IMG/VR virus record: IMGVR_UViG_3300042876_001059 | Span: 1 to 38,397 of that record | Length of the DNA: 38,397 nucleotides | Source: a virus | Direction: 5' to 3' (one strand) | Part shown: positions 11,582-33,428 of the stretch, in pieces | Numbering within the stretch: the first letter of the stretch is position 1 | Layout of the letters: the number at the start of each line of letters is the position of its first letter | Notes under the pieces: generated by a model | The model's database searches: none | Seen by the model: only the letters and a program-made list of their open reading frames with translations | Told to the model about the DNA's origin: nothing | Made by a program: the position numbers and the translations under genes

Positions 11582-14080
11582 ATGGCGCTGTCGAGCACGA
11601 CCACCAGGCAGACCTACACCGGCAACGGCGCCACGGCGGCCTTCGCCTTCACGATGCGGGTCGACCAGGCCTCCTGGCTGAAGGTCGACCTGGACGAGGT
11701 GGAGCAGGCCACCGGCTTCTCGGTGGAGCTCAACGCCGACCAGGGCGCCTCGCCGGGCGGCACGGTGACCTTCCTGGTCCCGCCGGGCGTCGGGGTGGCC
11801 ATCCGGCTGCGCCGGGCGGTGCCGCTCACCCAGGAGGCGACCTTCGGCCCCTACACGCGCTTCCCGGCGCAGACCGTGGAGCAGTCGCTCGACCAGGTCG
11901 TGATGGCCGCGCAGGACACGGCCTCGGATCTGGTCGACCTGAAGGCGGTGGTGACCAACGAGACCACCCAGGGTGCCGCCATCATCGCGCAGGCGCAGGC
12001 CAGCGCGGCCGCGGCGAGCGCGGCGTCGGCGCAGTCGGTGGCGGACTGGGTCTCGATCCCGGGGGCGGGTCGGGCCGAGCTCCTGAAGAAGCTCGCCGCG
12101 CTGAAGCTGACGGCCGGCCGGGTGACCTGGGTCGGCGACTCCATCACCGAGCAGGGCAAGACGGCCGGGCAGGGGTTCACGCACCAGCTCGAGCAGGCCT
12201 ACCAGGGGATCACCTACAGCAACCAGGGCGTGGGCGGGAACACGACGCTCGACGTCATCGCGCGGCTCCCCGCCATCACCGCCACGGCGGCGAACCTCTA
12301 CGTCCTGGCCATCGGGGTCAACGACGCCCGCTACAACGACGGCCGGGGCGCCACCACGGCGGCGGCCTACGTCGCCAACATGACCACCATCGTCAACGCG
12401 CTGAAGGCGGCCGGTGGCGACGTGGTCGTGCTCTCCATCTGGCCCACCTACGGGAAGGACCAGTTCGCCGCGCTCGGGCGCAAGGCCACCGACGACCGCT
12501 TCCGGGAGTGGAACGCCGCCCTGGAGACCTACTGCAAGGGCGCGGGCGTGCCCTTCGTCGACGCCTACACGCCGATCTCGAGGGCGGTCGGCCTGGGCAA
12601 CGTCACGACCCTGGCGCCGGACGGGGTCCACCCCGACTACAACGGCGCCGCCTACATCGGCACCGCTGGGGCCAAGCTCTACGCCGCCGCCATCCTGCGC
12701 GGCAGCGTGAGCCCGGCCGAGTTCGTGGCCATGCCGGCCCCGGCGGGCAAGGTCTTCTACAAGCTCGTGGTGCCCGACAACGGCGCCGCCAGCGACTGGA
12801 TCAGCGTCCAGAACCTCAACCCCGCCCCGGCCGCCGCCGAGTTCTACGCCTACTCCGGGAACCCGGCGGTGGACGTGACCAACCTCGTCGGGGCCTACAA
12901 CGGCGCCGCGGCGGGGTTCCTCAACAAGGCGGGCGACTGGCCGGCCGTGATCACCTTCAGCTCGGCGTCGTTCCTGACCTCGCTGCTCACCGTCATGCGG
13001 GGGCAGGCGCAGGGCATCCGGGCCTGGGAGCTCTACGTCTCGACCGACCCGGCGGCGCTCACCGACCCGAGCCATCCGACCTGGGTGCTCCACACCCGCG
13101 AGACCTCCACCGCCGCGTGGGCCAACAACCTCGCCCCCGCCAAGCGCCGCGGGGTCTTCTACCGGCTCCAGGTCGACAGCTCCAAGGGGAGCGACGGCAC
13201 GGGCGGTACCACCGGCATCTACGTCAAGGTGTCCAAGGTCTGGGGCGGGACGCCGCCGGTGCGCTGGGCGCACTTCAACGGCGTCGACCAGGACAAGCTC
13301 CGCGGGGACCTCATCTTCAGCGCGGCGGGTGGCAACGTCGCCAACGCGGGCGAGTACCTCAACAACGCGGCGAACACCTACCCCTACCATCTCGCCTGGG
13401 AGGCCGAGGACGACCACGCTTCGCTGGTGCTGGCCTCGGACGTGTCCGGCGGTGCCACGGCGCGCGGCATCAAGGCCTGGAGCCTCTACCGCTCCACGGA
13501 CCCGGCCTCGCTGACCGACGCGGCCCACTCCTCCTGGGTCAAGGTGGCCAGCGGCACGGGGGACCAGACCGTGCCCCTGGCCGGCGTGGCCCAGCCCATC
13601 GCCACCCTGACCCCGAACAGCACCACGCCGAGCGTGGCAGGGGGCAAGACCTTCGTCACCGCGAACACGGCGCCCACCACCATCACCGAGTTCACGGGCG
13701 GGGTCGATGGCCAGGAGGTGACGGTCATCGTCAACGACACGAACACCAGCTTCTCGTTCGTGGGAGGGGTCGGGAAGTTCCGGGGCAACGGGGGCCAGCT
13801 CTTCGCCGCGCCGCAGTACGCCTCGATCCGGGCCATCTACTCGGCCACCCTCGACCGCTGGCTGGCCATCCCCTCCTCGCCGGGCGTGGTGTCGGCCATC
13901 GACATCTCGGGGACGCTCAAGTTCGGCAGCGCCACGATGGTCAGCGCGGGCGCCGGCACGCCCGAGGGCGTCATCACGGCGCCGGTCGGGTCGATCTTCC
14001 TGCGGACCAATGGCGGCGCCGCCACCACGCTCTACGTGAAGGAGTCCGGGGCGGGCAACACCGGGTGGGTGGCCAAGTAG
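11582..14080 (+). CDS. Tail fibre with SGNH/GDSL hydrolase domain
   Basis: 832 aa. The N-terminal ~130 residues match the virion-anchoring head of T7-like tail fibres (TTTRQTYTGNGATAAFAF, then FGPYTRFPAQTVEQSLDQ). An Ala-rich coiled-coil link follows. The SGNH esterase domain (about 175-375) has WVGDSITEQ with S187, a GVGG oxyanion segment (216-219), GVND with N247, and DGVHPD with D347/H350, so all catalytic blocks are intact. Two similar C-terminal modules repeat WELYVSTDPAALTD and WSLYRSTDPASLTD, probably sugar-binding. The last ~40 residues (PEGVITAPVGSIFLRTNGG) match a common fibre tip. Known phage SGNH fibres deacetylate surface glycans during adsorption; that role is inferred here. Confidence 0.85.
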   Translation: MALSSTTTRQTYTGNGATAAFAFTMRVDQASWLKVDLDEVEQATGFSVELNADQGASPGGTVTFLVPPGVGVAIRLRRAVPLTQEATFGPYTRFPAQTVEQSLDQVVMAAQDTASDLVDLKAVVTNETTQGAAIIAQAQASAAAASAASAQSVADWVSIPGAGRAELLKKLAALKLTAGRVTWVGDSITEQGKTAGQGFTHQLEQAYQGITYSNQGVGGNTTLDVIARLPAITATAANLYVLAIGVNDARYNDGRGATTAAAYVANMTTIVNALKAAGGDVVVLSIWPTYGKDQFAALGRKATDDRFREWNAALETYCKGAGVPFVDAYTPISRAVGLGNVTTLAPDGVHPDYNGAAYIGTAGAKLYAAAILRGSVSPAEFVAMPAPAGKVFYKLVVPDNGAASDWISVQNLNPAPAAAEFYAYSGNPAVDVTNLVGAYNGAAAGFLNKAGDWPAVITFSSASFLTSLLTVMRGQAQGIRAWELYVSTDPAALTDPSHPTWVLHTRETSTAAWANNLAPAKRRGVFYRLQVDSSKGSDGTGGTTGIYVKVSKVWGGTPPVRWAHFNGVDQDKLRGDLIFSAAGGNVANAGEYLNNAANTYPYHLAWEAEDDHASLVLASDVSGGATARGIKAWSLYRSTDPASLTDAAHSSWVKVASGTGDQTVPLAGVAQPIATLTPNSTTPSVAGGKTFVTANTAPTTITEFTGGVDGQEVTVIVNDTNTSFSFVGGVGKFRGNGGQLFAAPQYASIRAIYSATLDRWLAIPSSPGVVSAIDISGTLKFGSATMVSAGAGTPEGVITAPVGSIFLRTNGGAATTLYVKESGAGNTGWVAK

Positions 14081-17947: not shown

Positions 17948-20071
17948 GTGCCCACCGCCAACCCGGCCCAGCGCACCTTCGCCGCGGGCGAGCTCTCCCA
18001 CCGGATGCGGGGCCAGTTCGGCTCCGAGGTCTACGGGGCCGGGCTCGAGCTCTGCGAGAACTTCAAGGTCCTGCCCCAGGGACCCGTGCTGATGCGTCCG
18101 GGCAGCTGGGACGCCGCGGCCTGGCCGGAGGCGGACCAGCCGCGCCTCTTCGACTTCCGGGTGAGCGGCTCCGCCGAGGACTACGTCTTCGCGGTCGGGG
18201 AGACGAAGGCCCGGCTCTACTCGAAGACCGACGGCCTGGTGGGCTTCCACCCCAACCTGATCAAGAACGGCCACTTCGACAGCCCCTTCGCCGTCTTCTG
18301 GACCCTTAACGGCGGCCTGACCGGTGACGGGTTCCTCGAGGAGGATGGGCGGGACCCGGCCCAGTTCTGGGCCACCCAGGCGGTGCCCACCATCGCCGGG
18401 CACACCTACGCCCTGTCCTTCCGAAGCCGCTACAACGGGGAGGCGGCCGGCTTCCAGCCGAGGTGGGATGTGCTCGCCAACGGCGCAGCGGTGGGCTCCG
18501 CGGCGATGGTATCGGGCGCGGACTGGAGGCTGCACGAGTTCACCTTCGTGGGCACCGGCGCGCCGGTCAGCCTGCGCTTCGAGGCCTTCTCCTCGACCCC
18601 CGGCATCGTGCTGCTGCTCGATGACGTCGTGGTCTACGACCAGGACGGCGCGCTCGTCACGGAACTGGACACCCCGTGGTCGGCGGCCCAGCTGGCCGAG
18701 GTGCAGTATTCGGCCGAGCTGGCCAACGGCCGGGCCTACTTCGTCCACCGGAACGTGCACCCCTGGGTGCTGCACATGGTGCGGCCCGGGGTCATCGACT
18801 GGCACAACTGGTATTCGGACCCCGAGCAGCCGTGGGCGGCCGACAACTGGCCGGGGGTCGTCGAGGCGGGGTTCCAGGGGCGCCTCTGGCTCGGGAGCAC
18901 CCCCAGCGACCCTCACACCCTGTGGGGGTCCAAGAGCGGGAACCCGACGACCTTCAGCCTCGGCACCGGGACGCCGGCGGATGGCATCTCGGTCATCATC
19001 TCGACGAAGGGGCGGCTGGAGTGGATCCAGGGCCAGCGGGTCCTGATGATCGGCTCCGAGGCCGCCGAGCACATCGCCACCGGCAGCGGCAACCTCATCT
19101 CGCAGACCGACATCGACGTGCAGGACGCCAGCGGGTTCGGATCGGCGCCGCTGCAGGCGCGCCACATCGGCGACCAGGTGCTCTTCGTTACGTCGGACCG
19201 GCGGAAGGTGCGCGCCCTCGACTACAGCTGGGAGAAGCAGGCCTGGTTCTCGAAGGCCATCACCTGGCACGCCGAGGACCTCATCGACTCGGACATCGTC
19301 GAGCTGCACTTCGCCCGGTCGCCGGACCCGACCATCCTGGTCGTGCTGGCCTCCGGGGCCCTGCGCGCGTGCACGTACGACCGGGGCGCCGGGGTGGCGG
19401 CCTGGTACCGGGTCGAGCTGGCCTCCGGCCTGGTGCGGTCCGCCTGCGTGGCTCGGACGGCGGTCGGGGACGAGCTCTGGCTCTCGATGGAGCGGGGCGG
19501 GGCGGCGCACATCGAGCGCCTGCCGCTGCACGAGTCCGGGGTGGGCTACTTCGACGCGGCTCATTCCGGCGCGGTGTCGGCCCACACCCCCTTCCCCGGT
19601 GACCCGGCCGTGGCACGCATCTTCGGCCTGAACCACCTCGAGGGGCTGACCGTGGGGCTGCTCATCGACGGTGAGCTGCGCGACGACCTGGTGGTGGCCG
19701 GGGGCGTGCTGGCGCTGCCCGCGGAGGACATCGGGCGGGCCTACCAGGTGGGGCTGCGCTACCAGGCGACGATGCGCACCATGCCGCTCGAGGGCGGGGC
19801 GCCGGCCGGCACGTCCCAGGCGGCCCGCCGCCGCTGGGCGAACATCTGCCTGCGGCTCAACGCCTCGGCCATCCCCCTCGTCAACGGGGAGCGGGCGCCG
19901 GAGCGCCTGCCCGGCACCCCGCTGGACTCGCCCACCGATCTACTGACCGGCGACGTCATCGTGCGCCGCTCCGACTGGGAGGACGACGGCCGGGTGACCA
20001 TCAAGCAGGACCTGCCCTTCAGGACCGAGGTCCTGGCCATCTTCGGCACGGTGCAGGTCAATCAGGTGTAG
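17948..20071 (+). CDS. Tail tubular protein B / nozzle with inserted lectin-like domain
   Basis: 707 aa, the nozzle that seals and opens the tail tube. The start ANPAQRTFAAGELSHRMRGQ, then YGAGLELCENFKVLPQGPVLMRPG and YVFAVGETKARLYS, are the canonical N-terminal blade of this family. The chain then diverges at about residues 99-233 (LIKNGHFDSP through VSLRFEAF and VLLLDDVVVYD), which looks like a carbohydrate-binding jelly roll of the CBM4/9 type. It resumes with the canonical ELDTPWSAAQLAEVQYSAEL and HPWVLH. Later WSGSxNxxxF-type SKSGNPTTFS and TDRRKVRALDYSW-like blocks follow. Insertion of a glycan-binding module at this point is inference from pattern. Confidence 0.82.
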   Translation: MPTANPAQRTFAAGELSHRMRGQFGSEVYGAGLELCENFKVLPQGPVLMRPGSWDAAAWPEADQPRLFDFRVSGSAEDYVFAVGETKARLYSKTDGLVGFHPNLIKNGHFDSPFAVFWTLNGGLTGDGFLEEDGRDPAQFWATQAVPTIAGHTYALSFRSRYNGEAAGFQPRWDVLANGAAVGSAAMVSGADWRLHEFTFVGTGAPVSLRFEAFSSTPGIVLLLDDVVVYDQDGALVTELDTPWSAAQLAEVQYSAELANGRAYFVHRNVHPWVLHMVRPGVIDWHNWYSDPEQPWAADNWPGVVEAGFQGRLWLGSTPSDPHTLWGSKSGNPTTFSLGTGTPADGISVIISTKGRLEWIQGQRVLMIGSEAAEHIATGSGNLISQTDIDVQDASGFGSAPLQARHIGDQVLFVTSDRRKVRALDYSWEKQAWFSKAITWHAEDLIDSDIVELHFARSPDPTILVVLASGALRACTYDRGAGVAAWYRVELASGLVRSACVARTAVGDELWLSMERGGAAHIERLPLHESGVGYFDAAHSGAVSAHTPFPGDPAVARIFGLNHLEGLTVGLLIDGELRDDLVVAGGVLALPAEDIGRAYQVGLRYQATMRTMPLEGGAPAGTSQAARRRWANICLRLNASAIPLVNGERAPERLPGTPLDSPTDLLTGDVIVRRSDWEDDGRVTIKQDLPFRTEVLAIFGTVQVNQV

Positions 20072-20080
20072 GGGGCGCCC

Positions 20081-20455
20081 GTGGATCCGTTCCTCATCTC
20101 GCTGGGCCTGCAGGGCGTCTCGGCCGTCGGGTCGTGGTGGTCGAAGCAGGCCGGGGCCGAGCAGGTCGACGCCAACACCGCCGAGTCGGTGCGGCGCTTC
20201 AAGGCACAGGCGGCGATGGAGCTGGGGGCCGCGAAGGCCGCCGGCGCGGCCTCCGGCGTCGAGTCCGACTCCGCCTCGCTCAACAACGTCGTTGGGAGGA
20301 TGGCGACCGAATACAAGCGCCAGGCCGACCTGCTGCTCCGCGCCGGCGACATCCAGTCCTCCGCCATCTCCCAGGCGGGCACCTTCGGCCTCCTCGGTGA
20401 CCTCGGCGGCGCGATCTTCAGCTACGGCCGCAACGCCGGCTGGGGCAAGGGGTAG
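20081..20455 (+). CDS. Internal virion (ejection) protein, gp14-like
   Basis: 124 aa, GTG start. Small Ala/Gly-rich protein with an N-terminal hydrophobic stretch (PFLISLGLQGVSAVGSWW), a helical middle and C-terminal IFSYGRNAGW. This size and composition, plus position between nozzle and two large ejection proteins, match the smallest of the three podovirus internal core proteins (T7 gp14), which inserts in the outer membrane on ejection. The internal VRRFKAQAAMELGAAKAAG and YKRQADLLLRAGD segments look like the paired helices of that group. Sequence similarity is not diagnostic. Confidence 0.62.
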   Translation: MDPFLISLGLQGVSAVGSWWSKQAGAEQVDANTAESVRRFKAQAAMELGAAKAAGAASGVESDSASLNNVVGRMATEYKRQADLLLRAGDIQSSAISQAGTFGLLGDLGGAIFSYGRNAGWGKG

Positions 20456-20458
20456 AGC

Positions 20459-22222
20459 GTGAAGATCCCCGGCATCAACTACGGCGGCCCGGTCCCCTCG
20501 ACGTTGGGGGCCATCCAGGTGGTGGACGACGCCCAGCGGCGCGCCGCGGCGCAGATCTCCCAGGGCCTGGACGCCCTCGGCCAGGAGATGGTGCGCACCC
20601 AGAGCGAGCAGGCGGCGGTGAGGCTCCAGACCGGCCTGAAGGAGCTCGAGACGGAGATCGCCTCGACGCCCTACATGAGCGCCGAGCAGGTCCGGGAGCG
20701 GCTCGGCCCCGACTTCGAGAGCCTGCGGCCGGAGGTGCGGCAGGAGCTCACCCGCACGGCGCCGGACGGGACCACCGTCGACCGCCAGGACGTGCCCACC
20801 TGGATGGTGGCGGGGGCGCTCTACCAGCGGCGGGCGCGCGAGCTCCAGACCGACGCCGCCCAGAGCATCAGCTTCCCCGGCCACCGGTCGGAGTTCGAGC
20901 GGAAGGCCCAGCTCGAGGTGGCCGACGGCCAGCACCGGATGGTGGTCACCGCGGCGAAGGCGGCCATCGACGACCAGAAGGCGACCCAGAAGGCGACCGT
21001 GGCGCAGCTGGTGCGCCTGAAGGCCTACGACCAGGCGCTCGAGGCGGTGAACACCTCGAAGGCCTGGGAGCCCGGGGAGAAGGCGCAGCTGGTCGAGAGC
21101 GTGCTGGCGCAGAAGCAGGCCGACGAGGAGATCGAGGTGCCGCTCGCCGCGGCGACGGAGGCCGCCAAGGCGCGCCGGCCGAGCGGCGAGGTGGACGTGA
21201 AGCGGGCGCAGGCCATCCTCGACGGGACCGGGGGGCTCGACGCGAAGCAGCGGCTGCGGGCGCAGGCCATCCTGGACGACAAGGTGCGCCAGGCGGCGCA
21301 GGGCTACCAGCAGACCCTCGGCGACGTCATCCTGAAGGCGAAGGCGGCCTGGGAGAACGGCGACCCGGCGCGCGGGATCGCCCCCTACACGGACCCCAAC
21401 TCCTCGGTGCCGCAGGAGCTGCAGGGCTGGCTGCGCAACGCCCAGCACCCCGGCGGCCCGGACGCCTGGGAGCAGCTCCTCGGGTGGCACCAGGGCTACG
21501 TGAACCGGGACCGCGCCAACGCCCAGATCCCCACCCCGTCCCAGACGGCCCAGGCCGCCGAGCTCGAGGCGGACATCGTGCGCGAGACGCAGGCGGGCGG
21601 GCAGCTCTACCGGACCATGCCGGTGGGCGTCTTCGTGTCGCAGTGGGCCGGCCGGCTCACCGCGCCCCAGTTCGACAGGGTCTTCGGGCTCTTCCTGGCG
21701 GCCAACAAGAGCCAGCCCGGCGGCGCCGTCAACCTGGTCTCGGACAAGGCGGTGCTGATGTCGGTCATGCCGCCGGAGTGGCTGCCGGCGAAGCGGGCCG
21801 GCCGCGGCGGGCCGGACCCCGAGAAGCCCGAGACCTGGCCGGCCAACTCGAAGCCCTGGGCGGCCTGGACCGACCTCTCCGAGGCCTTCGACGGCTGGCT
21901 GCGCGCCAACCCCCAGGCCGACGCCAAGGCGAAGACGGCCGAGGCGCAGCGCCTGGTGGCCGAGCGGCTGGCCGAACAGCTCCGGGAGCGCAGCTCGAAG
22001 TGGGGCGCCCCGGCCACCATCACCGGCTTCGAGGCGCGCCGGCGCACCGACCTGGACCGGTCCAACTACGTGCCGGACGAGAGCTTCGAGCCCCCGGTGG
22101 TCCCCGGCGTGCCGCCGGCCGATCTGCCCGCCTACCAGAAGGCGCTGCGCGACCGGGGGATGAAGGCCACCGCGGCCAACGTGCTGGACCTCTGGAAGAA
22201 GGCCCACCCCGAGACGAGGTAG
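20459..22222 (+). CDS. Internal virion (ejection) protein, gp15-like
   Basis: 587 aa, almost wholly helical and Ala/Gln/Glu-rich. It begins IPGINYGGPVPSTLGAIQVVDDAQRRAAAQISQGLDALGQ, a start common in podovirus internal core proteins of this position. Long helices with regular charged faces continue to about residue 320. A more globular C-terminal half includes ITGFEARRRTDLDRSNYV and ends in PAYQKALRDRGMKATAANVLDLWKKAHP. By position it is the second ejection protein (T7 gp15), which lines the periplasmic channel. GTG start lies four bases after the previous stop and the large polyvalent gene follows after three bases. Confidence 0.68.
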   Translation: MKIPGINYGGPVPSTLGAIQVVDDAQRRAAAQISQGLDALGQEMVRTQSEQAAVRLQTGLKELETEIASTPYMSAEQVRERLGPDFESLRPEVRQELTRTAPDGTTVDRQDVPTWMVAGALYQRRARELQTDAAQSISFPGHRSEFERKAQLEVADGQHRMVVTAAKAAIDDQKATQKATVAQLVRLKAYDQALEAVNTSKAWEPGEKAQLVESVLAQKQADEEIEVPLAAATEAAKARRPSGEVDVKRAQAILDGTGGLDAKQRLRAQAILDDKVRQAAQGYQQTLGDVILKAKAAWENGDPARGIAPYTDPNSSVPQELQGWLRNAQHPGGPDAWEQLLGWHQGYVNRDRANAQIPTPSQTAQAAELEADIVRETQAGGQLYRTMPVGVFVSQWAGRLTAPQFDRVFGLFLAANKSQPGGAVNLVSDKAVLMSVMPPEWLPAKRAGRGGPDPEKPETWPANSKPWAAWTDLSEAFDGWLRANPQADAKAKTAEAQRLVAERLAEQLRERSSKWGAPATITGFEARRRTDLDRSNYVPDESFEPPVVPGVPPADLPAYQKALRDRGMKATAANVLDLWKKAHPETR

Positions 22223-22225
22223 AAC

Positions 22226-25200
22226 ATGGCGACCCTGGACGAGCTGGCGCAGCAGCTCGCGGACGAGCAGCGCCAGCGGGCGGACGAGGCCGCCGGCGCC
22301 AAGGCGCCAGACCTCGGCGCGCTCGCCGACAGCATGGTGCAGGAGCGGGCGGCCCGCAGGCAGGCGGACGTGGACCTCCTCCGCTTCCGGGACCAGCACT
22401 TCCCCGTCGAGCCGGCGCGGGCGGCGGACGCCCTGCGCATCGCGGCGGCCACCGGCCAGCAGCCGGAGTACGTGCTGAAGAACTTCGACGCCCTGGCCCC
22501 GAAGGTTAAGCCCTTCCTGGCGGCCGAGGTGGACTGGGACAAGGTCGCGCGAGAGCACCCTGACGTCTTCGGGGCGGTGCTGGATCCGGTGAAGGGGCCG
22601 GTCATCCGGGACGCGGTGGGCGAGCTCCAGGGCGTCTCCTGGGCCCTCACCGGGCGCTGGGAGAACCAGGACGTGGTGGTGAGCCCCGAGGACGCCGCCC
22701 GGAACCGGGCCGCCCTCGAGAACGTCTGGGGCGAGCCGGACCTCTCCGGCGCGCCGACGGAGGCCGGGCCGGCCACCGTCCGCCGCCAGGTGGCCCCCTC
22801 GGCGGTGGGCCGCGCGGCGGAGCGCGGGGTGCAGCAGCAGGAGTACGTCCGCCGGACCTTCGAGGCGGCGACCGGGCAGGCCCAGCCGGGCAACGAGCAG
22901 CGGCTCCAGGACCTCGAGGAGCTGGCCACCGCGGACGTGGGCGCCGACTCGGCGCTGGCGCGGGGCGTACTGGCGCCGGTGGAGATGGCCCCCTACCTCG
23001 CCGGCCGCATCCTGGCGGGCCAGGCGGGCCGGCTGGTGACGGCGGGCATCGGCGCGGCCGTCGGCGCCCTGGCGGGCACCTTCGTGGAGCCTCTCGGCGG
23101 CACGGCGCTGGGCGCGGCGGAGGGCGCGGCCTTCGGCTACGGCGTGGCCGGGCCCGCGGCGGACTACGTGGCCGGGGTGGGCTGGGACACCTACCAGACG
23201 GTGGGCCCGCTCTACCGGCAGCTGACCCAGCTCCGCGACGAGAACGGGGCCCAGCTGCTCACCGACGAGGAGGCGCGCCGGTGGGCCTTCGGGGGCTCGG
23301 CGCTCACCTCGGCGCTGACGGCCGGCCTGGGGGCCAAGTTCGTGCGGGGCGTCGAGGGGGCGCTGGTGCGCCAGACCGAGACGGCCCTGGGGAAGGCGCT
23401 GGCGCAGCGCACGGTGGTCCAGGCCATGAAGGACCTGGCGCGGGAGGGCGGGTCGCACCTGGCCTCCGGCGCGCTCATGCTGGCGGTCCAGAACGCCGGC
23501 ATGGCGGTGACCACCGAGGCGGCCGCGGCGAACTCGAGCTCGCACGAGTTCAGCTGGAGCCGGGTGGGCCGGTCGGCCCTCGAGGGCCTCGAGGCGGGGG
23601 TGCGCGACCTCTGGCTGCTCTCCTTCTGGGGCCCGGGCCGGAAGTTCATCGGCGACGTGGGCCTGGCGGTGGAGAGCCGGCGGGCCGCCCACCAGGTCGA
23701 GCGGTTCGTGGACGCCCTCGACGCGGCCCAGCGGAAGGTGCCCGAGTCGGGCCACACGGTGCTCGACCAGGTGGTGAGCCGCCTGGCTCAGGCCAAGGGC
23801 GGGGATCGCCCCCTGCGCGAGCTCTACTTCCGCAAGGAGGCCTGGGACGCCTTCGCGCAGAAGCTGGGCGTGGACCCCGGGCAGCTCGCCGGCGAGGTCC
23901 TGGGGGACGGGGGGAAGGGCTACGGCGAGGTGCAGCTGCACGGCGGCGACGTGGTGGTGCCCGTCGCCCGCGCCCGCCGGCTGCTGCGCGGCGACAAGGC
24001 GGCCCTGGACTTCGTGAAGCAGGAGGGGCGCGCCGCGCCGGAGCTGAAGAGCGCCCGCGAGGTGGTCCAGGACCAGGTCGACCAGCTCAACCGGATGCGG
24101 GCGGCGGCCGAGACCCCGGACGCGGTGAAGCAGCGGCAGGCGATCTTCGAGGCCATCCGGGGCCGGGCGCTGGCGGCGAAGGAGAACCCCCAGCGCGCCG
24201 CGGACCTGGCGCGGCAGTTCGCCGACGCGGCGGCCGCGGTGGGCGCCCGCCTGGGCGTCCCGCCGGCCGAAGCGGCGGCGATGATGGGGATCGGGCGCCT
24301 GCGCATCGTGGGCGGCCCATCCGAGAAGGTCGCCCGGCTGCGCCAGGAGCGCGCCGCGGCGGCCGCCATGCCGGACATCCTGGGCCTGCTCTCGGCGGAG
24401 AGCCAGGAGCGGATCCGCGTGGCGCTGGGCTCCATCGACCGGTCGAGCGCCCAGGGCCAGGCCATCGCCGAGCTGGCCGCCGGCGCCTACCGGCACCCGG
24501 TGACCGGCCTCCCGAACCGGCTCGCCTTCGAGGAGAGCGCGCGGGCGGCCCGCCCGGGGCAGGTCTTCATCTCCGCCGACATGGCGGGCCTGAAGGCCAT
24601 CAACGACGCCTTCGGCCACGAGGCCGGGGACCGGGCCCTGCGGACCTTCTCCGAGGCCTGGGCGCAGGCCCTGCGCGAGGTGGGGGGCCAGCCGGCGCAC
24701 ACCGGCGGCGACGAGTTCATGGCGGTTGTCCCGCGCGCCGCGGCGCGGCAGGCGGTCGACCGCGCCATCGCCATCCTGCAGGCCAAGGAGCCCCTGCTGA
24801 CCCGGGCCGACCTGGCGCAGCTGAAGGGCGAGCTCCGGGCGCAGGCGGAGGCCTGGTGGCCGGCGGGGGGCGACTTCAAGGTGTCCGCCCGCTTCGGCAT
24901 CGGCCCCACCCCCAAGACGGCCGACGCCGCCGAGCTGGTGGCGCGGCAGGCCCAGATCGCCAAGCACGGCGACATCCGGGCGGGGAAGAGCACCCAGGGC
25001 CACGGGGAGAGCTTCGTCCACGACGCCTTCGACCCGGCCAGCCCGGTGCGCGCCGCGGCCGAGGCGGCCTCCGCCAGGCGCCTTGCCGACTGGCAGGCGA
25101 CGCACCCCGGCCAGGAGGCCCTCGCCGAGGTGGAGCCGGGCGCGGTGGTGGGCACCCGGGCCGCCCTGGGCCAGGGGGAGCACGGCTCCCTCGAGGTGGT

Positions 25201-28200
25201 CCTGGACGACGGGACCGGGAAGCCGCTCGAGGCGGTGTTGCACCTCACCGACCCCAACGCCCTGACGGGCAGCCACGAGTTCGCCCACTGGCTGGTGGAG
25301 AGCCTCTCGCGCATGGCGACGCGCGGCGAGCTCGACAAGGCCGGGGAGACGGGGGTGCCGAGCCTCCGGGAGGACTACGACGCCCTGCTGCGCTGGGCGG
25401 GCTGGGAGAGCCACGCCGCGCGCCAGGCCGAGACGGCGGAGCGGGTGGCCCTGGCCGGGAAGAAGGGCCGGACGGCTGCCGAGGGCCGGCGGCTGCAGGA
25501 GCTGACGGCCAAGGAGGAGCGGGTCTCCTACGCCTGGGAGCAGCTGCTCGGCGAGGGGCGGGCGCCAAGCGCCTCCCTGGCGGGCCCCTTCCGGCGCTTC
25601 AGCCGGTGGGTGGCGCGCATCTACGGGGGGATCGAGGGGGTCGAGGCGAAGTACCGGGACCTCTACGGCCAGGACCTCGGGATGAACGAGGAGGTGCGGG
25701 GCATCTTCCGCCGCCTGGTGGCCAGCCAGGAGGAGATCGCCAAGGCGAAGGCCGGCGAGGAGCACCTGCCCTTCCGGCCGCCGGAGCAGCTGACCCCGGA
25801 GGAGCGGGCCCGGTGGGCCGAGCTCGACGCGAAGGACCGCGCCGCGGCGGAGGCCGCGCTGCTGCATGCCCTGACCCTGGAGACCCGGAAGGACCAGCGG
25901 GAGGTGGTCACCAAGCTGAAGACCGCCATCCGGGAGAAGGTCGACCAGGAGCTCGACGGGAACCTGGTCTACCAGGCGCAGCGCTTCCTCGCCGAGGGGG
26001 TCCTGCGCGCCGGCGAGGCGCCGCCGCCGGACCTCATCGGCCCCGACGGCCAGGTGGCCCGGCTGGATCGGGGCGAGCTGGTGAGGCGCTACGGCGCCGA
26101 CCTGGTGAAGCAGCTCCCGCAGGCCGGCCTGGCCGAGCGCGGCGGGGTGAAGGCGGACGATCTGGCGGCCGCCCTGGGCTTCCCCTCGGGGGACGCCATG
26201 GTGCGCGCCCTGGCCGCGGCGGAGCCCCGGGAGCGGGTGGCGCAGCGGGAGGCGGCCCGGCGGGTGCTGGACCAGCTCGGCCCGGTGCTCCTCGAGGACC
26301 CGGCCCGGCTCAACGAGGCGGCGCTGGACGCCTCCTACACCCCCGAGGCGGCCGAGAAGGTGCTACTCTCGATCCGCTCCATCGCCCGGGATATCGACCC
26401 GACGCTGCCGGCCCGGCTGCCGGCCATCGACCTCGAGCTGCTGCGGGCCCAGGCCGAGCGGCTCATCGGCGAGAAGCCGGTGGGCGAGCTCTCCCCGGCC
26501 TACTACCGGGAGGCGGCCAAGGCGGCCGCCCGGCGGGCCTTCAAGCTGGCGGCCGAGGCGGCGGAGGGGAAGGACGCCGCGAAGCGCCAGGCGGCGCTGG
26601 TGAAGGCCTACGACGAGACCCAGGCGCAGAACCTCTCCGAGATGCTCTACCGGGCTGCCAAGGAGGCCCAGGAGCGGGCGGACGCCGCCCGGGTGGCGGT
26701 GGAGAAGACCGCCGGCGAGGCCTGGCGGGCCGAGCTGGGCCTGGCCTCCCCGATCTACCGGGAGGTGCACGACGAGCTCCTGGCGGCCGTGGGCATCGGG
26801 CCGGCCATCGACCCGGCGGTGGCGCGGGCCTCCTTCGACCAGCTGCTGGGCCAGGCGGCCGCCGACGCGGCCGTGATGGACGAGGGCTGGCAGCCGGTGG
26901 TGCGGGACCTCCTTCGCCGGCCGCGGGAGTGGGCGCAGCTGACCGTGGACGAGGTCCAGGCCCTGCGGGACGCGGTGACCAACATCCGCCGCGCGGCCAA
27001 CCTGAAGAACGAGGTGAAGCTCCTCGACAAGATGACCAGCCGCGGCGACCTCCTCGACGAGATGGAGGCGACGGCGCGGGCCGCCAACCCGGTGCGGGCG
27101 CGGGGCCGGCGCGACGCCGCCACCGAGGGCGACACGACCACCGTGCGCTCCGGCGTGCGGGGCCTGGCCGCCTCGCTGCTGGGGATCGAGACCATCGCCA
27201 CGTACCTCGACGGGGAGAACCGGGACGGCCCCTTCCACCGGCTCTTCGTCGACGCCCTGGTGGCGGCCCGGAACCGCGAGGCCGACCTGGCCAAGCGCTA
27301 CGGCCAGGTGCTGAAGGACGCCTGGGCGGAGATGCCCCAGGAGGTGAAGGACCGCCGCTTCGAGCTGGTGGACCTGCGCCAGGACCTGCCGCTGCGCGGC
27401 GAGCTCGCCGACTCGGCCTGGGTCGACGACTCGGCGGTGCAGCGCACCTACCTCTGGATGGTCTTCCTCAACCGGGGCAACGCGGAGAACCTGCAGCGGC
27501 TCACCGACGGCTACGGCTGGTCGGTGGAGCAGGTCGACGCCGCCCTCGAGCGCCACCTGACGCCGGCCGAGGGGCGCTTCCTGCAGAAGGTCCTCGACTC
27601 GCTCGAGGGGCTCTACCCGGAGATCGCCGCCCTCCACGAGCGCGACACCGGCCTGAAGCCGGGGAAGGTGAAGGCGGAGGCCTTCGAGCTGACGCTGGGC
27701 GGCGAGCGCCAGCGCTTCGCCGGCGGCTACTTCCCGGCCAAGTACGACCCCCGGCCGGGCATGAGCCGGCGGGGCTTCGCGGCGCAGGAGCGGGAGGTCT
27801 CGGCCATCCTCAACCCCGAGAGCCTCTACCCCGGCACGCCGAAGGGGCACACCAAGGCCCGCGCCGTCCAGGTGCACGACGTGCTGAACCTCCAGTGGGA
27901 CGTGGTCCCGCGGCACGTCTCGAGCGTCATCCACGACCTGGCCTTCCGCGAGTACGTCCGCGAGGCGGCCTACATCGTCACCACCGACCGCTTCCGCACC
28001 ATCGTGGCCAGCACCCTGGGGCTGGAATACTTCGACCAGTTCAAGCCCTGGCTGCAGAGCGTGGCCACCGGGCGCGACGCCGCGGTGACGTCGGAGATCC
28101 GCCAGGCCTTCGGGCTCATCATGCTGGGGCGCAGCCGGGCGATGGTGGGGGCCCTGGGCCACCGGATGTCGGTGGCGCTCGGCGACCTGATGAACCCCGT

Positions 28201-29311
28201 GCTGGCCACCCTGCAGCTGCAGGTGCGCCCGGACCACCTGGCCCGGGCCGCGGCGGAGCTCACCCCCGGCGCGCCGGGCTGGCGCGAGCGCTGGGCCTTC
28301 GCCCACGAGACCTCGAAGGAGCTCTCGCACCGCCGGGAGCGGGCGACGCACCAGCTGCGCCAGGAGCTCGCCTCCATCGGGGAGGGGAACGCCCTGATGC
28401 GCTCCCCCAAGACCCGGGCGCTCGGCGAGCTGGTGAAGGGGGCGCAGGAGTCGGCCTTCGTGCTGATGGAGCACACCGACCGGATCGCCTCGACCCACAT
28501 GTGGCTGGCCAAGTACCTCGACGAGAAGGCGGCCGGCGAGAAGGCGGGCCGGCCGGACGCCCACACGCGGGCGGTCCGCGCCGCCGACGACCTGGTGAGG
28601 CGGTCGCAGCCGGCGGAGTGGGCCGGCGAGAAGAGCGCCATCTTGCGCCGGCGCGACGTGTTCGGGACCATCCTGATGTTCTACGGGTGGCTGAACCAGG
28701 TCCACCAGGCGAAGCGGCTGGCCGTGCACCGGGCGGTCGCCCGGTGGCAGATGCCCGGCGCGACGGCCGGGGACCGGGTGGGCGCGGTGGCGCGGGCCGC
28801 CGGCATCCTCCTCGGCACCACCATCGGCGTGGCCCTCGGCGACGCGGCGAGCGGCCACGGGAAGCTGGCCGACGACGAGAGCTGGGCCGACTGGTGGAAG
28901 CGGAAGCTGGTGGCGGGGGAGTTCGTTGACCTGCCCTTCGTGGGCCCCTGGGTGGAGCACATGTACGCCACCCAGGTGGAGGGGAAGCAGGCGCGCTTCC
29001 CGGTGCGGACGGCGCCTGGTCTGGCCTTCGGCGAGAACATCCTCCGGGAGCTGGGGAAGGTGGCGGACGGCGAGACCGCGCCCGACGAGCGCGGCTGGGC
29101 GGCGGTGAAGGCCTCCGGGCTGCTCTCGGGCCTCCCGGTCTCCCAGCTGGTCACCTCGGGCCAGTACGTGACGAGCGGGCGGGCGGGCGAGGACGCGGCG
29201 GCGGGCCGGCCCCTGGACGTGCTGGGCGGGCTCATCTACGGCGAGCGCGACGGCGGGCCGCAGAACCCCCTGACCGGCGCTCAGGAGCTCATCAGCGGCG
29301 GGGGGAGGTGA
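22226..29311 (+). CDS. Giant polyvalent ejection-type protein with GGDEF and HExxH domains
   Basis: 2361 aa, last and largest of the ejection genes. Residues about 257-322 are Gly/Ala-rich hydrophobic, probably membrane-inserting. Residues about 530-590 carry the polyvalent-protein block FRKEAWDAFAQKLGV and GGDVVVP. Residues about 755-905 form a GGDEF domain: TGLPNR (760-765), D785, N793, D802 and GGDEF (827-831), with no RxxD inhibitory site before it. HEFAH (1017-1021), with E1098 or E1105, is a zincin motif followed by the family tail (GRAPSASLAGPFRRFSRWVARIY). Long helices follow; the C-terminal third (GGYFPAKYD near 1833) matches large phage virion proteins. Probably delivered into the host with DNA, though packaging is inferred. 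Confidence 0.78.
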   Translation: MATLDELAQQLADEQRQRADEAAGAKAPDLGALADSMVQERAARRQADVDLLRFRDQHFPVEPARAADALRIAAATGQQPEYVLKNFDALAPKVKPFLAAEVDWDKVAREHPDVFGAVLDPVKGPVIRDAVGELQGVSWALTGRWENQDVVVSPEDAARNRAALENVWGEPDLSGAPTEAGPATVRRQVAPSAVGRAAERGVQQQEYVRRTFEAATGQAQPGNEQRLQDLEELATADVGADSALARGVLAPVEMAPYLAGRILAGQAGRLVTAGIGAAVGALAGTFVEPLGGTALGAAEGAAFGYGVAGPAADYVAGVGWDTYQTVGPLYRQLTQLRDENGAQLLTDEEARRWAFGGSALTSALTAGLGAKFVRGVEGALVRQTETALGKALAQRTVVQAMKDLAREGGSHLASGALMLAVQNAGMAVTTEAAAANSSSHEFSWSRVGRSALEGLEAGVRDLWLLSFWGPGRKFIGDVGLAVESRRAAHQVERFVDALDAAQRKVPESGHTVLDQVVSRLAQAKGGDRPLRELYFRKEAWDAFAQKLGVDPGQLAGEVLGDGGKGYGEVQLHGGDVVVPVARARRLLRGDKAALDFVKQEGRAAPELKSAREVVQDQVDQLNRMRAAAETPDAVKQRQAIFEAIRGRALAAKENPQRAADLARQFADAAAAVGARLGVPPAEAAAMMGIGRLRIVGGPSEKVARLRQERAAAAAMPDILGLLSAESQERIRVALGSIDRSSAQGQAIAELAAGAYRHPVTGLPNRLAFEESARAARPGQVFISADMAGLKAINDAFGHEAGDRALRTFSEAWAQALREVGGQPAHTGGDEFMAVVPRAAARQAVDRAIAILQAKEPLLTRADLAQLKGELRAQAEAWWPAGGDFKVSARFGIGPTPKTADAAELVARQAQIAKHGDIRAGKSTQGHGESFVHDAFDPASPVRAAAEAASARRLADWQATHPGQEALAEVEPGAVVGTRAALGQGEHGSLEVVLDDGTGKPLEAVLHLTDPNALTGSHEFAHWLVESLSRMATRGELDKAGETGVPSLREDYDALLRWAGWESHAARQAETAERVALAGKKGRTAAEGRRLQELTAKEERVSYAWEQLLGEGRAPSASLAGPFRRFSRWVARIYGGIEGVEAKYRDLYGQDLGMNEEVRGIFRRLVASQEEIAKAKAGEEHLPFRPPEQLTPEERARWAELDAKDRAAAEAALLHALTLETRKDQREVVTKLKTAIREKVDQELDGNLVYQAQRFLAEGVLRAGEAPPPDLIGPDGQVARLDRGELVRRYGADLVKQLPQAGLAERGGVKADDLAAALGFPSGDAMVRALAAAEPRERVAQREAARRVLDQLGPVLLEDPARLNEAALDASYTPEAAEKVLLSIRSIARDIDPTLPARLPAIDLELLRAQAERLIGEKPVGELSPAYYREAAKAAARRAFKLAAEAAEGKDAAKRQAALVKAYDETQAQNLSEMLYRAAKEAQERADAARVAVEKTAGEAWRAELGLASPIYREVHDELLAAVGIGPAIDPAVARASFDQLLGQAAADAAVMDEGWQPVVRDLLRRPREWAQLTVDEVQALRDAVTNIRRAANLKNEVKLLDKMTSRGDLLDEMEATARAANPVRARGRRDAATEGDTTTVRSGVRGLAASLLGIETIATYLDGENRDGPFHRLFVDALVAARNREADLAKRYGQVLKDAWAEMPQEVKDRRFELVDLRQDLPLRGELADSAWVDDSAVQRTYLWMVFLNRGNAENLQRLTDGYGWSVEQVDAALERHLTPAEGRFLQKVLDSLEGLYPEIAALHERDTGLKPGKVKAEAFELTLGGERQRFAGGYFPAKYDPRPGMSRRGFAAQEREVSAILNPESLYPGTPKGHTKARAVQVHDVLNLQWDVVPRHVSSVIHDLAFREYVREAAYIVTTDRFRTIVASTLGLEYFDQFKPWLQSVATGRDAAVTSEIRQAFGLIMLGRSRAMVGALGHRMSVALGDLMNPVLATLQLQVRPDHLARAAAELTPGAPGWRERWAFAHETSKELSHRRERATHQLRQELASIGEGNALMRSPKTRALGELVKGAQESAFVLMEHTDRIASTHMWLAKYLDEKAAGEKAGRPDAHTRAVRAADDLVRRSQPAEWAGEKSAILRRRDVFGTILMFYGWLNQVHQAKRLAVHRAVARWQMPGATAGDRVGAVARAAGILLGTTIGVALGDAASGHGKLADDESWADWWKRKLVAGEFVDLPFVGPWVEHMYATQVEGKQARFPVRTAPGLAFGENILRELGKVADGETAPDERGWAAVKASGLLSGLPVSQLVTSGQYVTSGRAGEDAAAGRPLDVLGGLIYGERDGGPQNPLTGAQELISGGGR

Positions 29312-33325: not shown

Positions 33326-33330
33326 CTCAG

Positions 33331-33368
33331 CTGGCGCCACGGGCTCGAACCGTGGTCCCCGTCGCCAG
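33331..33368 (-). other. tRNA T-arm/acceptor-like minihelix
   Basis: On the leftward strand: CTGGCG, seven bases (ACGGGGA), CCACGG, loop TTCGAGC, CCGTGG, CGCCAG. The two 6-bp stems stack into a 12-bp helix like the acceptor plus T arm of a tRNA, and TTCGAGC is a canonical T-loop. D and anticodon arms are absent and no CCA follows. It sits between two pentamer arrays. Could be a structured RNA element, a remnant of a tRNA gene, or chance in GC-rich DNA. Confidence 0.5.
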
Positions 33369-33378
33369 GTGCTGCTCC

Positions 33379-33428
33379 CTGCCTCGCCCCGCCAGGCATC
33401 GCCCCGCCAGGCCCAGCCACGCCGTGCC
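33379..33428. repeat. Pentanucleotide NNGCC array 2
   Basis: Ten consecutive pentamers (CTGCC TCGCC CCGCC AGGCA TCGCC CCGCC and on to GTGCC) reaching the stop codon of the gene at 33428. Same period and consensus as arrays 1 and 3. The tRNA-like hairpin separates it from array 1. Confidence 0.75.

What the first reader, a model, noticed from the sequence alone, without database searches (positions are those of the whole stretch)
22226..29311. GGDEF (diguanylate cyclase) domain inside a phage ejection-type protein
Seen: residues about 755-905 of the 2361-aa protein contain TGLPNR, D785, N793, D802 and an intact GGDEF (827-831), matching metal and GTP contacts of active cyclases. The residues before GGDEF (EVGG) lack the RxxD inhibitory site. 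Known: active GGDEF domains make cyclic di-GMP, and polyvalent phage proteins can be injected with DNA. Inference: a virion-delivered, feedback-free cyclase could flood the newly infected cell with c-di-GMP, changing motility, surface sugars or defence. The combination is the strongest candidate here for an undescribed system.
Basis: partly seen in the sequence, partly recalled or inferred. Interest (0 to 1): 0.85.

Follow-up and report, generated by a model that had tools for sequence, protein, structure and literature searches.

The report
Cyclase domain in phage ejection protein
A short-tailed phage carries, inside the giant protein it probably injects with its DNA, a domain with the fold and most active-site residues of the enzymes that make the bacterial signal c-di-GMP; this kind of cargo was predicted in 2017, but related phages show it is a swappable module that could now be tested directly.

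Summary
Residues 741-916 of the 2361-aa protein (window 24446-24973) are a GGDEF domain: Pfam E 2.6e-14, AlphaFold pLDDT 85, about 2.2 Å to WspR and PleD. D785, N793, D802 and GGDEF 827-831 are present and the RxxD inhibitory site is absent. Two points weaken 'intact': the phosphate-binding Lys is Arg (R907), and the usual following Arg has no clear counterpart.

The host protein is a polyvalent internal virion protein of the BPP-1 Bbp10 / phrog_9880 type, with a conserved HExxH domain and a long C-terminal core. The GGDEF sits in a variable slot just before HExxH, where orthologs carry ART, PBECR nuclease, GNAT or nothing. GGDEF occurs in 5 of 80 viral orthologs not chosen for it. One ortholog pair shows a filled and an empty site. 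About 60 further giant phage proteins carry a distinct viral GGDEF family with invariant catalytic residues.

The best reading is an ejected, I-site-free diguanylate cyclase effector. Activity, virion packaging and effect are not shown. GGDEF in injected polyvalent proteins was already published (Iyer et al. 2017), so this is a new member of a known kind.

The parts
22226..29311 (+). Giant polyvalent internal virion (ejection-type) protein, 2361 aa
   Evidence: phrog_9880 E 4.4e-151 over residues 1014-2340; distant orthologs in BPP-1, AF, Caulobacter SR18, Vibrio, Xanthomonas CP2 phages; gene order like bbp13-bbp10 and AF gp12-gp16
24446..24973 (+). GGDEF (diguanylate cyclase-type palm) domain, residues about 741-916
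   Evidence: Pfam PF00990 E 2.6e-14; AlphaFold model pLDDT 84.9; WspR Z 16.0, 2.3 Å over 143 residues, PleD Z 14.9, 2.2 Å over 141
24578..24580 (+). D785, metal-binding Asp (PleD D327 equivalent)
   Evidence: 41/41 viral-type and 33/37 bacterial sequences have D
24602..24631 (+). N793 to D802, guanine-contacting residues (PleD N335 and D344 equivalents)
   Evidence: N in 78/78; D802 in 38/41 viral-type and 37/37 bacterial sequences
24704..24718 (+). GGDEF motif, residues 827-831
   Evidence: G828 and E830 in 78/78 and D829 in 77/78 aligned sequences
24944..24946 (+). R907 at the position of the phosphate-binding Lys (PleD K442)
   Evidence: K in 41/41 viral-type and 34/37 bacterial sequences; R in 3 bacterial
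23903..24295 (+). Conserved block before the cargo slot (GGDVVVPV..., residues 560-690)
   Evidence: multiple alignment with BPP-1, Caulobacter, Vibrio and IMG/VR orthologs
24320..25180 (+). Variable cargo slot (residues about 699-985) holding the GGDEF
   Evidence: orthologs have ART-PolyVal, PBECR1/5, GNAT, LPD23 or little here
25274..25288 (+). HEFAH, HExxH motif of the predicted zincin-like metallopeptidase domain (H1017, E1018, H1021; E1105 downstream)
   Evidence: H, E and H invariant in 58/58 sequences; fold not confirmed against solved structures
25193..29308 (+). Conserved C-terminal core (HExxH domain plus long C-terminal region)
   Evidence: alignments A1, A2; 524 viral relatives detected, 80 kept
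17948..20071 (+). Tail protein upstream of the giant gene (bbp13-like)
   Evidence: phrog_376 tail protein E 5.2e-91

Best explanation
A GGDEF cyclase domain is carried as interchangeable cargo in a podophage ejection protein. The long C-terminal core and the HExxH domain are the carrier. The carrier is packaged in the head, leaves with the DNA, and the cargo reaches the cytoplasm, perhaps freed by the HExxH domain. There the GGDEF pairs up (ejection proteins sit in the virion as oligomers) and makes c-di-GMP from GTP without I-site feedback, shifting host behaviour or nucleotide-based defence early in infection. Shown here: the fold, the conserved metal and guanine residues, the carrier homology, the slot and its swapping in relatives. 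Inferred from family and gene order: packaging and ejection. Inferred only: catalysis, product, proteolytic release, benefit to the phage.
For: Fold and domain. Carrier family and synteny. Other effector domains in orthologs (ART-PolyVal in 3, PBECR1, PBECR5, GNAT). Recurrence: 5 of 80 orthologs not chosen for GGDEF have it at the same place. Swap: L136 and L022 align at 389-734/397-751 (48%) and 1016-2271/754-2022 (64%), leaving 281 residues with the GGDEF (787-951) in one and 2 in the other; L074 and L081 show 68% and 72% identical flanks around unrelated middles. Selection: in 41 viral-type GGDEFs the metal Asp, guanine Asn, Glu of the motif and phosphate Lys are invariant. The DxAGxK variant of the window also occurs in a solved T. 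maritima GGDEF (VDLAGFKAIND, 4urs). Oligomeric ejection proteins: PMC11440229.
Against: The phosphate Lys is Arg and the next Arg is unmatched, so phosphate binding may be impaired. The window's domain is a long branch whose place among viral or bacterial GGDEFs is unresolved, so conservation in the viral family need not apply to it. No close relative of the window was found, so selection on this copy could not be tested. No proteomics for this protein family was found. Two relatives (L019, L020) have decayed palms, so not all copies are active.
Confidence: 0.55

Rival explanations
1. A degenerate GGDEF that binds GTP or c-di-GMP, or senses nucleotides, but does not cyclise; it acts as a sponge or regulator of the carrier.
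For: R907 instead of Lys and no clear second phosphate residue; A787; long branch; tandem decayed palms in L019 and L020 show that decay happens.
Against: All metal and guanine residues and the full GGDEF motif are kept; many inactive GGDEFs lose the motif first (general knowledge). Lys to Arg is mild and also seen in 3 of 37 bacterial sequences.
Confidence: 0.25
2. A GGDEF-derived palm used structurally or for nucleic acid handling in the ejectosome, with no signalling role.
For: It lies in an ejection-type protein; the palm fold is shared with Cas10 and mCpol polymerases (PMC12657218).
Against: The domain is gained and lost between close orthologs while the core stays, other slot occupants are effector enzymes, and the catalytic residues are conserved in the viral family.
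Confidence: 0.1
3. An active cyclase made and used only late in infection or in lysogens, not delivered by the virion.
For: YuA-like phages encode a related GGDEF as a free 156-aa protein beside an anti-restriction gene, and lysogens of a Bordetella siphophage with a GGDEF gene form more biofilm (PMC8471281).
Against: Here the domain is fused to a structural-cassette protein.
Confidence: 0.1

Closest known systems
GGDEF-bearing phage polyvalent proteins (Iyer et al. 2017, PMC5512222)
   Same: Large multidomain phage protein predicted to be injected; GGDEF together with a zincin-like HExxH domain; cyclic-nucleotide interference already proposed
   Different: Their named example is an Acetonema prophage protein with SNF2, methyltransferase and ART; here a BPP-1-type podophage protein with GGDEF as the only recognised enzyme besides HExxH. 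They call GGDEF 'not very widespread'; the survey here found about 60 giant carriers
Bordetella phage BPP-1 Bbp10 / phrog_9880 giant protein
   Same: Homologous C-terminal core, HExxH domain, similar gene order in the structural cassette
   Different: Bbp10 has no GGDEF; about 24% identity overall
YuA/MP1412-type phage GGDEF protein (phrog_5594)
   Same: Compact phage GGDEF; phrog_5594 is the best PHROG match to the window's GGDEF (7.9e-15)
   Different: Free-standing, SGDEF motif, not in the structural cassette
PleD / WspR diguanylate cyclases
   Same: Fold (about 2.2 Å), metal and guanine residues, GG[DE]EF motif
   Different: No receiver domain, no I-site, Arg for the phosphate Lys
N4 virion RNA polymerase C-terminal region (PMC12633501)
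   Same: Cargo enzyme, then HExxH domain, then large C-terminal region in an ejected giant protein
   Different: No sequence match found; cargo is an RNA polymerase

Membership tests
GGDEF / diguanylate cyclase domain (PF00990) | Family profile and fold | tested here: met
   Pfam 53.8 bits versus cut-off 23.8; TIGR00254 48.4 versus 37.4; WspR Z 16.0, PleD Z 14.9
GGDEF / diguanylate cyclase domain (PF00990) | Metal Asp, GG[DE]EF motif, guanine Asn and Asp | tested here: met
   D785, G827-F831, N793, D802
GGDEF / diguanylate cyclase domain (PF00990) | Phosphate-binding Lys and Arg of the last helix | tested here: inconclusive
   R907 at the Lys position, no clear second Arg; K913 nearby
GGDEF / diguanylate cyclase domain (PF00990) | Synthesis of c-di-GMP as a dimer | not testable with these tools
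   needs biochemistry
Phage polyvalent proteins | Large multidomain protein with unrelated enzymatic domains in shuffled combinations | tested here: met
   GGDEF plus HExxH domain; ART, PBECR, GNAT, LPD22/23 in orthologs; swaps in relatives
Phage polyvalent proteins | Delivered into the host with the DNA | not testable with these tools
   inferred from gene order and homology only
BPP-1 Bbp10-type internal virion protein | Homologous core and position after tail and internal virion genes | tested here: met
   but the two genes just upstream (20081-22222) have no detectable match
Zincin-like metallopeptidase | HExxH plus downstream Glu | tested here: met
   H1017, E1018, H1021 invariant in 58 sequences; E at the 1098 and 1105 positions in at least 90%
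Zincin-like metallopeptidase | Zincin fold | tested here: inconclusive
   model pLDDT 83.5, HExxH on a helix after short strands; best listed match only Z 3.4, none a zincin

The most novel reading that the evidence does not exclude
Phages of several groups share a dedicated GGDEF cassette that they inject to set host c-di-GMP, or to swamp a cyclic-nucleotide defence, before any phage gene is expressed: a virion-delivered second-messenger synthase class, of which the window holds a diverged member.
Probability: 0.35. Interest if true: 0.8.

Novelty: new member of a known kind. Interest (0 to 1): 0.5.

Why it matters
No experiment found in the literature held here tests whether phages inject a second-messenger synthase. 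The filled/empty ortholog pairs and the viral GGDEF family with invariant catalytic residues give clean material for such a test. If true, c-di-GMP, which controls motility, surface sugars and some phage receptors (N4, PMC8669472), would come under the control of the virion in the first minutes of infection, and c-di-GMP-sensing defence could be involved.

Tried and rejected
1) A pyrophosphatase (InPase) partner as support for catalysis: 16 of 72 GGDEF giants carry PF18823 and 0 of 85 GGDEF-less core giants do, but the control failed: only 1 of 80 InPase giants has a GGDEF, so InPase is a common domain of other phage giants; dropped. 2) Single-sequence searches of viral contigs with the window domain or protein gave no relatives. 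3) Placing the window domain by tree: neither a viral nor a bacterial grouping is rejected. 4) Sequence homology of the core to solved structures, N4 vRNAP included: none. 5) Zincin fold by structure: no zincin among the listed matches. 6) Many hits in the phage collection from human faeces (MT83xxxx) are unverified scaffolds; the two inspected (L006, L007) look like bacterial genes with GGDEF, so such hits were not counted as phage GGDEFs. 7) Literature on virion proteomics of BPP-1-type giant proteins: not found.

Full report
What is there. The window is a whole virus record of 38,397 bases, GC about 74%. The ORF at 22226-29311 encodes 2361 residues. Third-position GC is 0.98-1.00 throughout, so the frame is real and continuous. 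Pfam finds one domain, GGDEF, E 2.6e-14 at residues 758-856; NCBIfam TIGR00254 agrees.

Structure. An AlphaFold2 model of residues 715-935 made with 78 relatives has mean pLDDT 84.9. The best solved matches are all GGDEF domains: WspR Z 16.0, 2.3 Å over 143 residues; PleD Z 14.9, 2.2 Å over 141. The domain core runs from about residue 741 to 916.

Active site. Against 41 viral-type and 37 bacterial sequences: metal Asp D785 (D in 41/41 and 33/37), N793 (78/78), D802 (75/78), G828 and E830 (78/78), D829 (77/78). D802 is the residue whose change to Ser marks the cGAMP-type (Hypr) cyclases (general knowledge), so c-di-GMP is the predicted product. Departures: A787 for the second Asp, also Ala in the solved T. 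maritima GGDEF 4urs (VDLAGFKAIND); R907 for the phosphate Lys, and no clear partner for the following Arg. The bacterial set was drawn with SGDEF-type patterns, so it is not a fair sample of all bacterial GGDEFs.

The carrier. PHROGs places residues 1014-2340 in phrog_9880 (E 4.4e-151) and the GGDEF in phrog_5594 and similar phage families. tblastn finds the core in 43 phage records, among them BPP-1 Bbp10, Pseudomonas AF gp16, Caulobacter SR18, Vibrio and Xanthomonas CP2 phages. BPP-1 and AF show the order tail protein, internal virion protein(s), transglycosylase/endolysin, giant protein. The window has the tail protein (phrog_376) at 17948-20071, then two genes without detectable match, then the giant gene. 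Eleven giants aligned share the HExxH motif (H1017, E1018, H1021) and a long C-terminal core.

The slot. In those 11 proteins Pfam finds LPD22 in 10, ART-PolyVal in 3, and PBECR1, PBECR5, LPD23, GNAT and GGDEF in one each. These belong to the polyvalent-protein domain set of Iyer et al. 2017. The stretch corresponding to residues 700-1025 varies from 168 to 1109 residues among the orthologs. An alignment-based scan of viral contigs detected 524 relatives of the core and kept 80. Five carry GGDEF in the same place: L080, L074, L085, L019, L020. L019 and L020 have two palms in tandem, the first decayed.

Swapping. L136 (GGDEF 787-951) and L022 (none) align at 389-734/397-751 with 48% identity and at 1016-2271/754-2022 with 64%. 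Between the blocks L136 has 281 residues and L022 has two. L074 and L081 share 68% and 72% identical flanks around unrelated middles. This shows that the GGDEF is a cassette in these relatives; in the window it lies in the corresponding place.

The viral GGDEF family. Searching with three phage GGDEFs gave 71 viral loci. About 60 of them lie in ORFs of 1000-6000 residues, with the signature [YF]H[IV]SGDEF and a C-terminal K..RE..G.RA.RG. Nineteen of these giants scanned with Pfam carried, besides GGDEF, InPase, LPD22, RadC, LPD38, LPD1, Kinase-PolyVal, ddrB-ParB, SNF2 and ART-PolyVal. YuA-type siphophages encode the same domain as a free protein. In a tree most viral sequences group together (SH-aLRT 93). 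The window's domain shares His before the motif with the viral type (34/41 against 1/37 bacterial) but is a long branch, and neither a viral nor a bacterial placement is rejected. L085 groups with Myxococcus phage Mx1-like cyclases, so GGDEFs may have entered these carriers more than once.

Mechanism. Podophage ejection proteins form tetramers and octamers in the virion (PMC11440229), which could supply the dimer that cyclases need. Iyer et al. proposed that HExxH domains free individual domains of polyvalent proteins. In the N4 virion polymerase a cargo enzyme is followed by an HExxH domain and a large helical domain (PMC12633501), a similar plan to that here, although no sequence match was found. 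My model of the HExxH region is confident (pLDDT 83.5) but matched no solved zincin, so peptidase activity stays a motif-based prediction.

What is known. Iyer et al. 2017 state that GGDEF domains in polyvalent proteins suggest use of cyclic nucleotide signals, to interfere with host responses or act against rival elements, and call them not very widespread. A GGDEF protein of temperate Bordetella siphophages has been linked, by correlation, to hyperbiofilm in lysogens (PMC8471281). Host c-di-GMP can decide phage entry (N4, PMC8669472). Searches of the open library for phage-delivered or phage-encoded diguanylate cyclases found no experimental study of delivery; subscription journals are mostly missing.

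Verdict. The additions here are the slot and swap evidence, the empty-site pair, the size of the viral GGDEF family, and the caution about the phosphate-binding residues. Activity and delivery remain to be shown.

Noticed in passing
L019 residues 758-1081 and L020 residues 826-1156 of the giant ORFs: Two tandem GGDEF-like palms in one chain, the first with a decayed motif (SGTDF/NGTDF), the second HGDEY/SGDEL; resembles a built-in heterodimer of palms.
   Followed up: no
L003 5956-6917 (Pseudomonas phage MP1412): Free phage GGDEF protein directly beside a KlcA-type anti-restriction gene in YuA-like phages.
   Followed up: no
L005 5854-6585 (Myxococcus phage Mx1), L168, L085: A second phage GGDEF lineage (DxNDFGxxNK, the K of LK replaced by G), in Mx1 encoded between a prohead protease gene and the capsid gene.
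   Followed up: partly
IMG/VR loci L108-L160: InPase domain (PF18823) often near the GGDEF in giant phage proteins; the control search showed InPase is common without GGDEF.
   Followed up: yes
window 11582-14080: Tail-fibre-like protein with a GDSL lipase/acylhydrolase domain (PF13472 E 3.9e-24), perhaps acting on surface sugars.
   Followed up: no
window 20081-22222: Two genes between the tail gene and the giant gene with no detectable homologs, at the place of the internal virion and transglycosylase genes of relatives.
   Followed up: partly
window 33329-33417 (-): Predicted tRNA-Ala (GGC), on the strand opposite to the structural genes.
   Followed up: no
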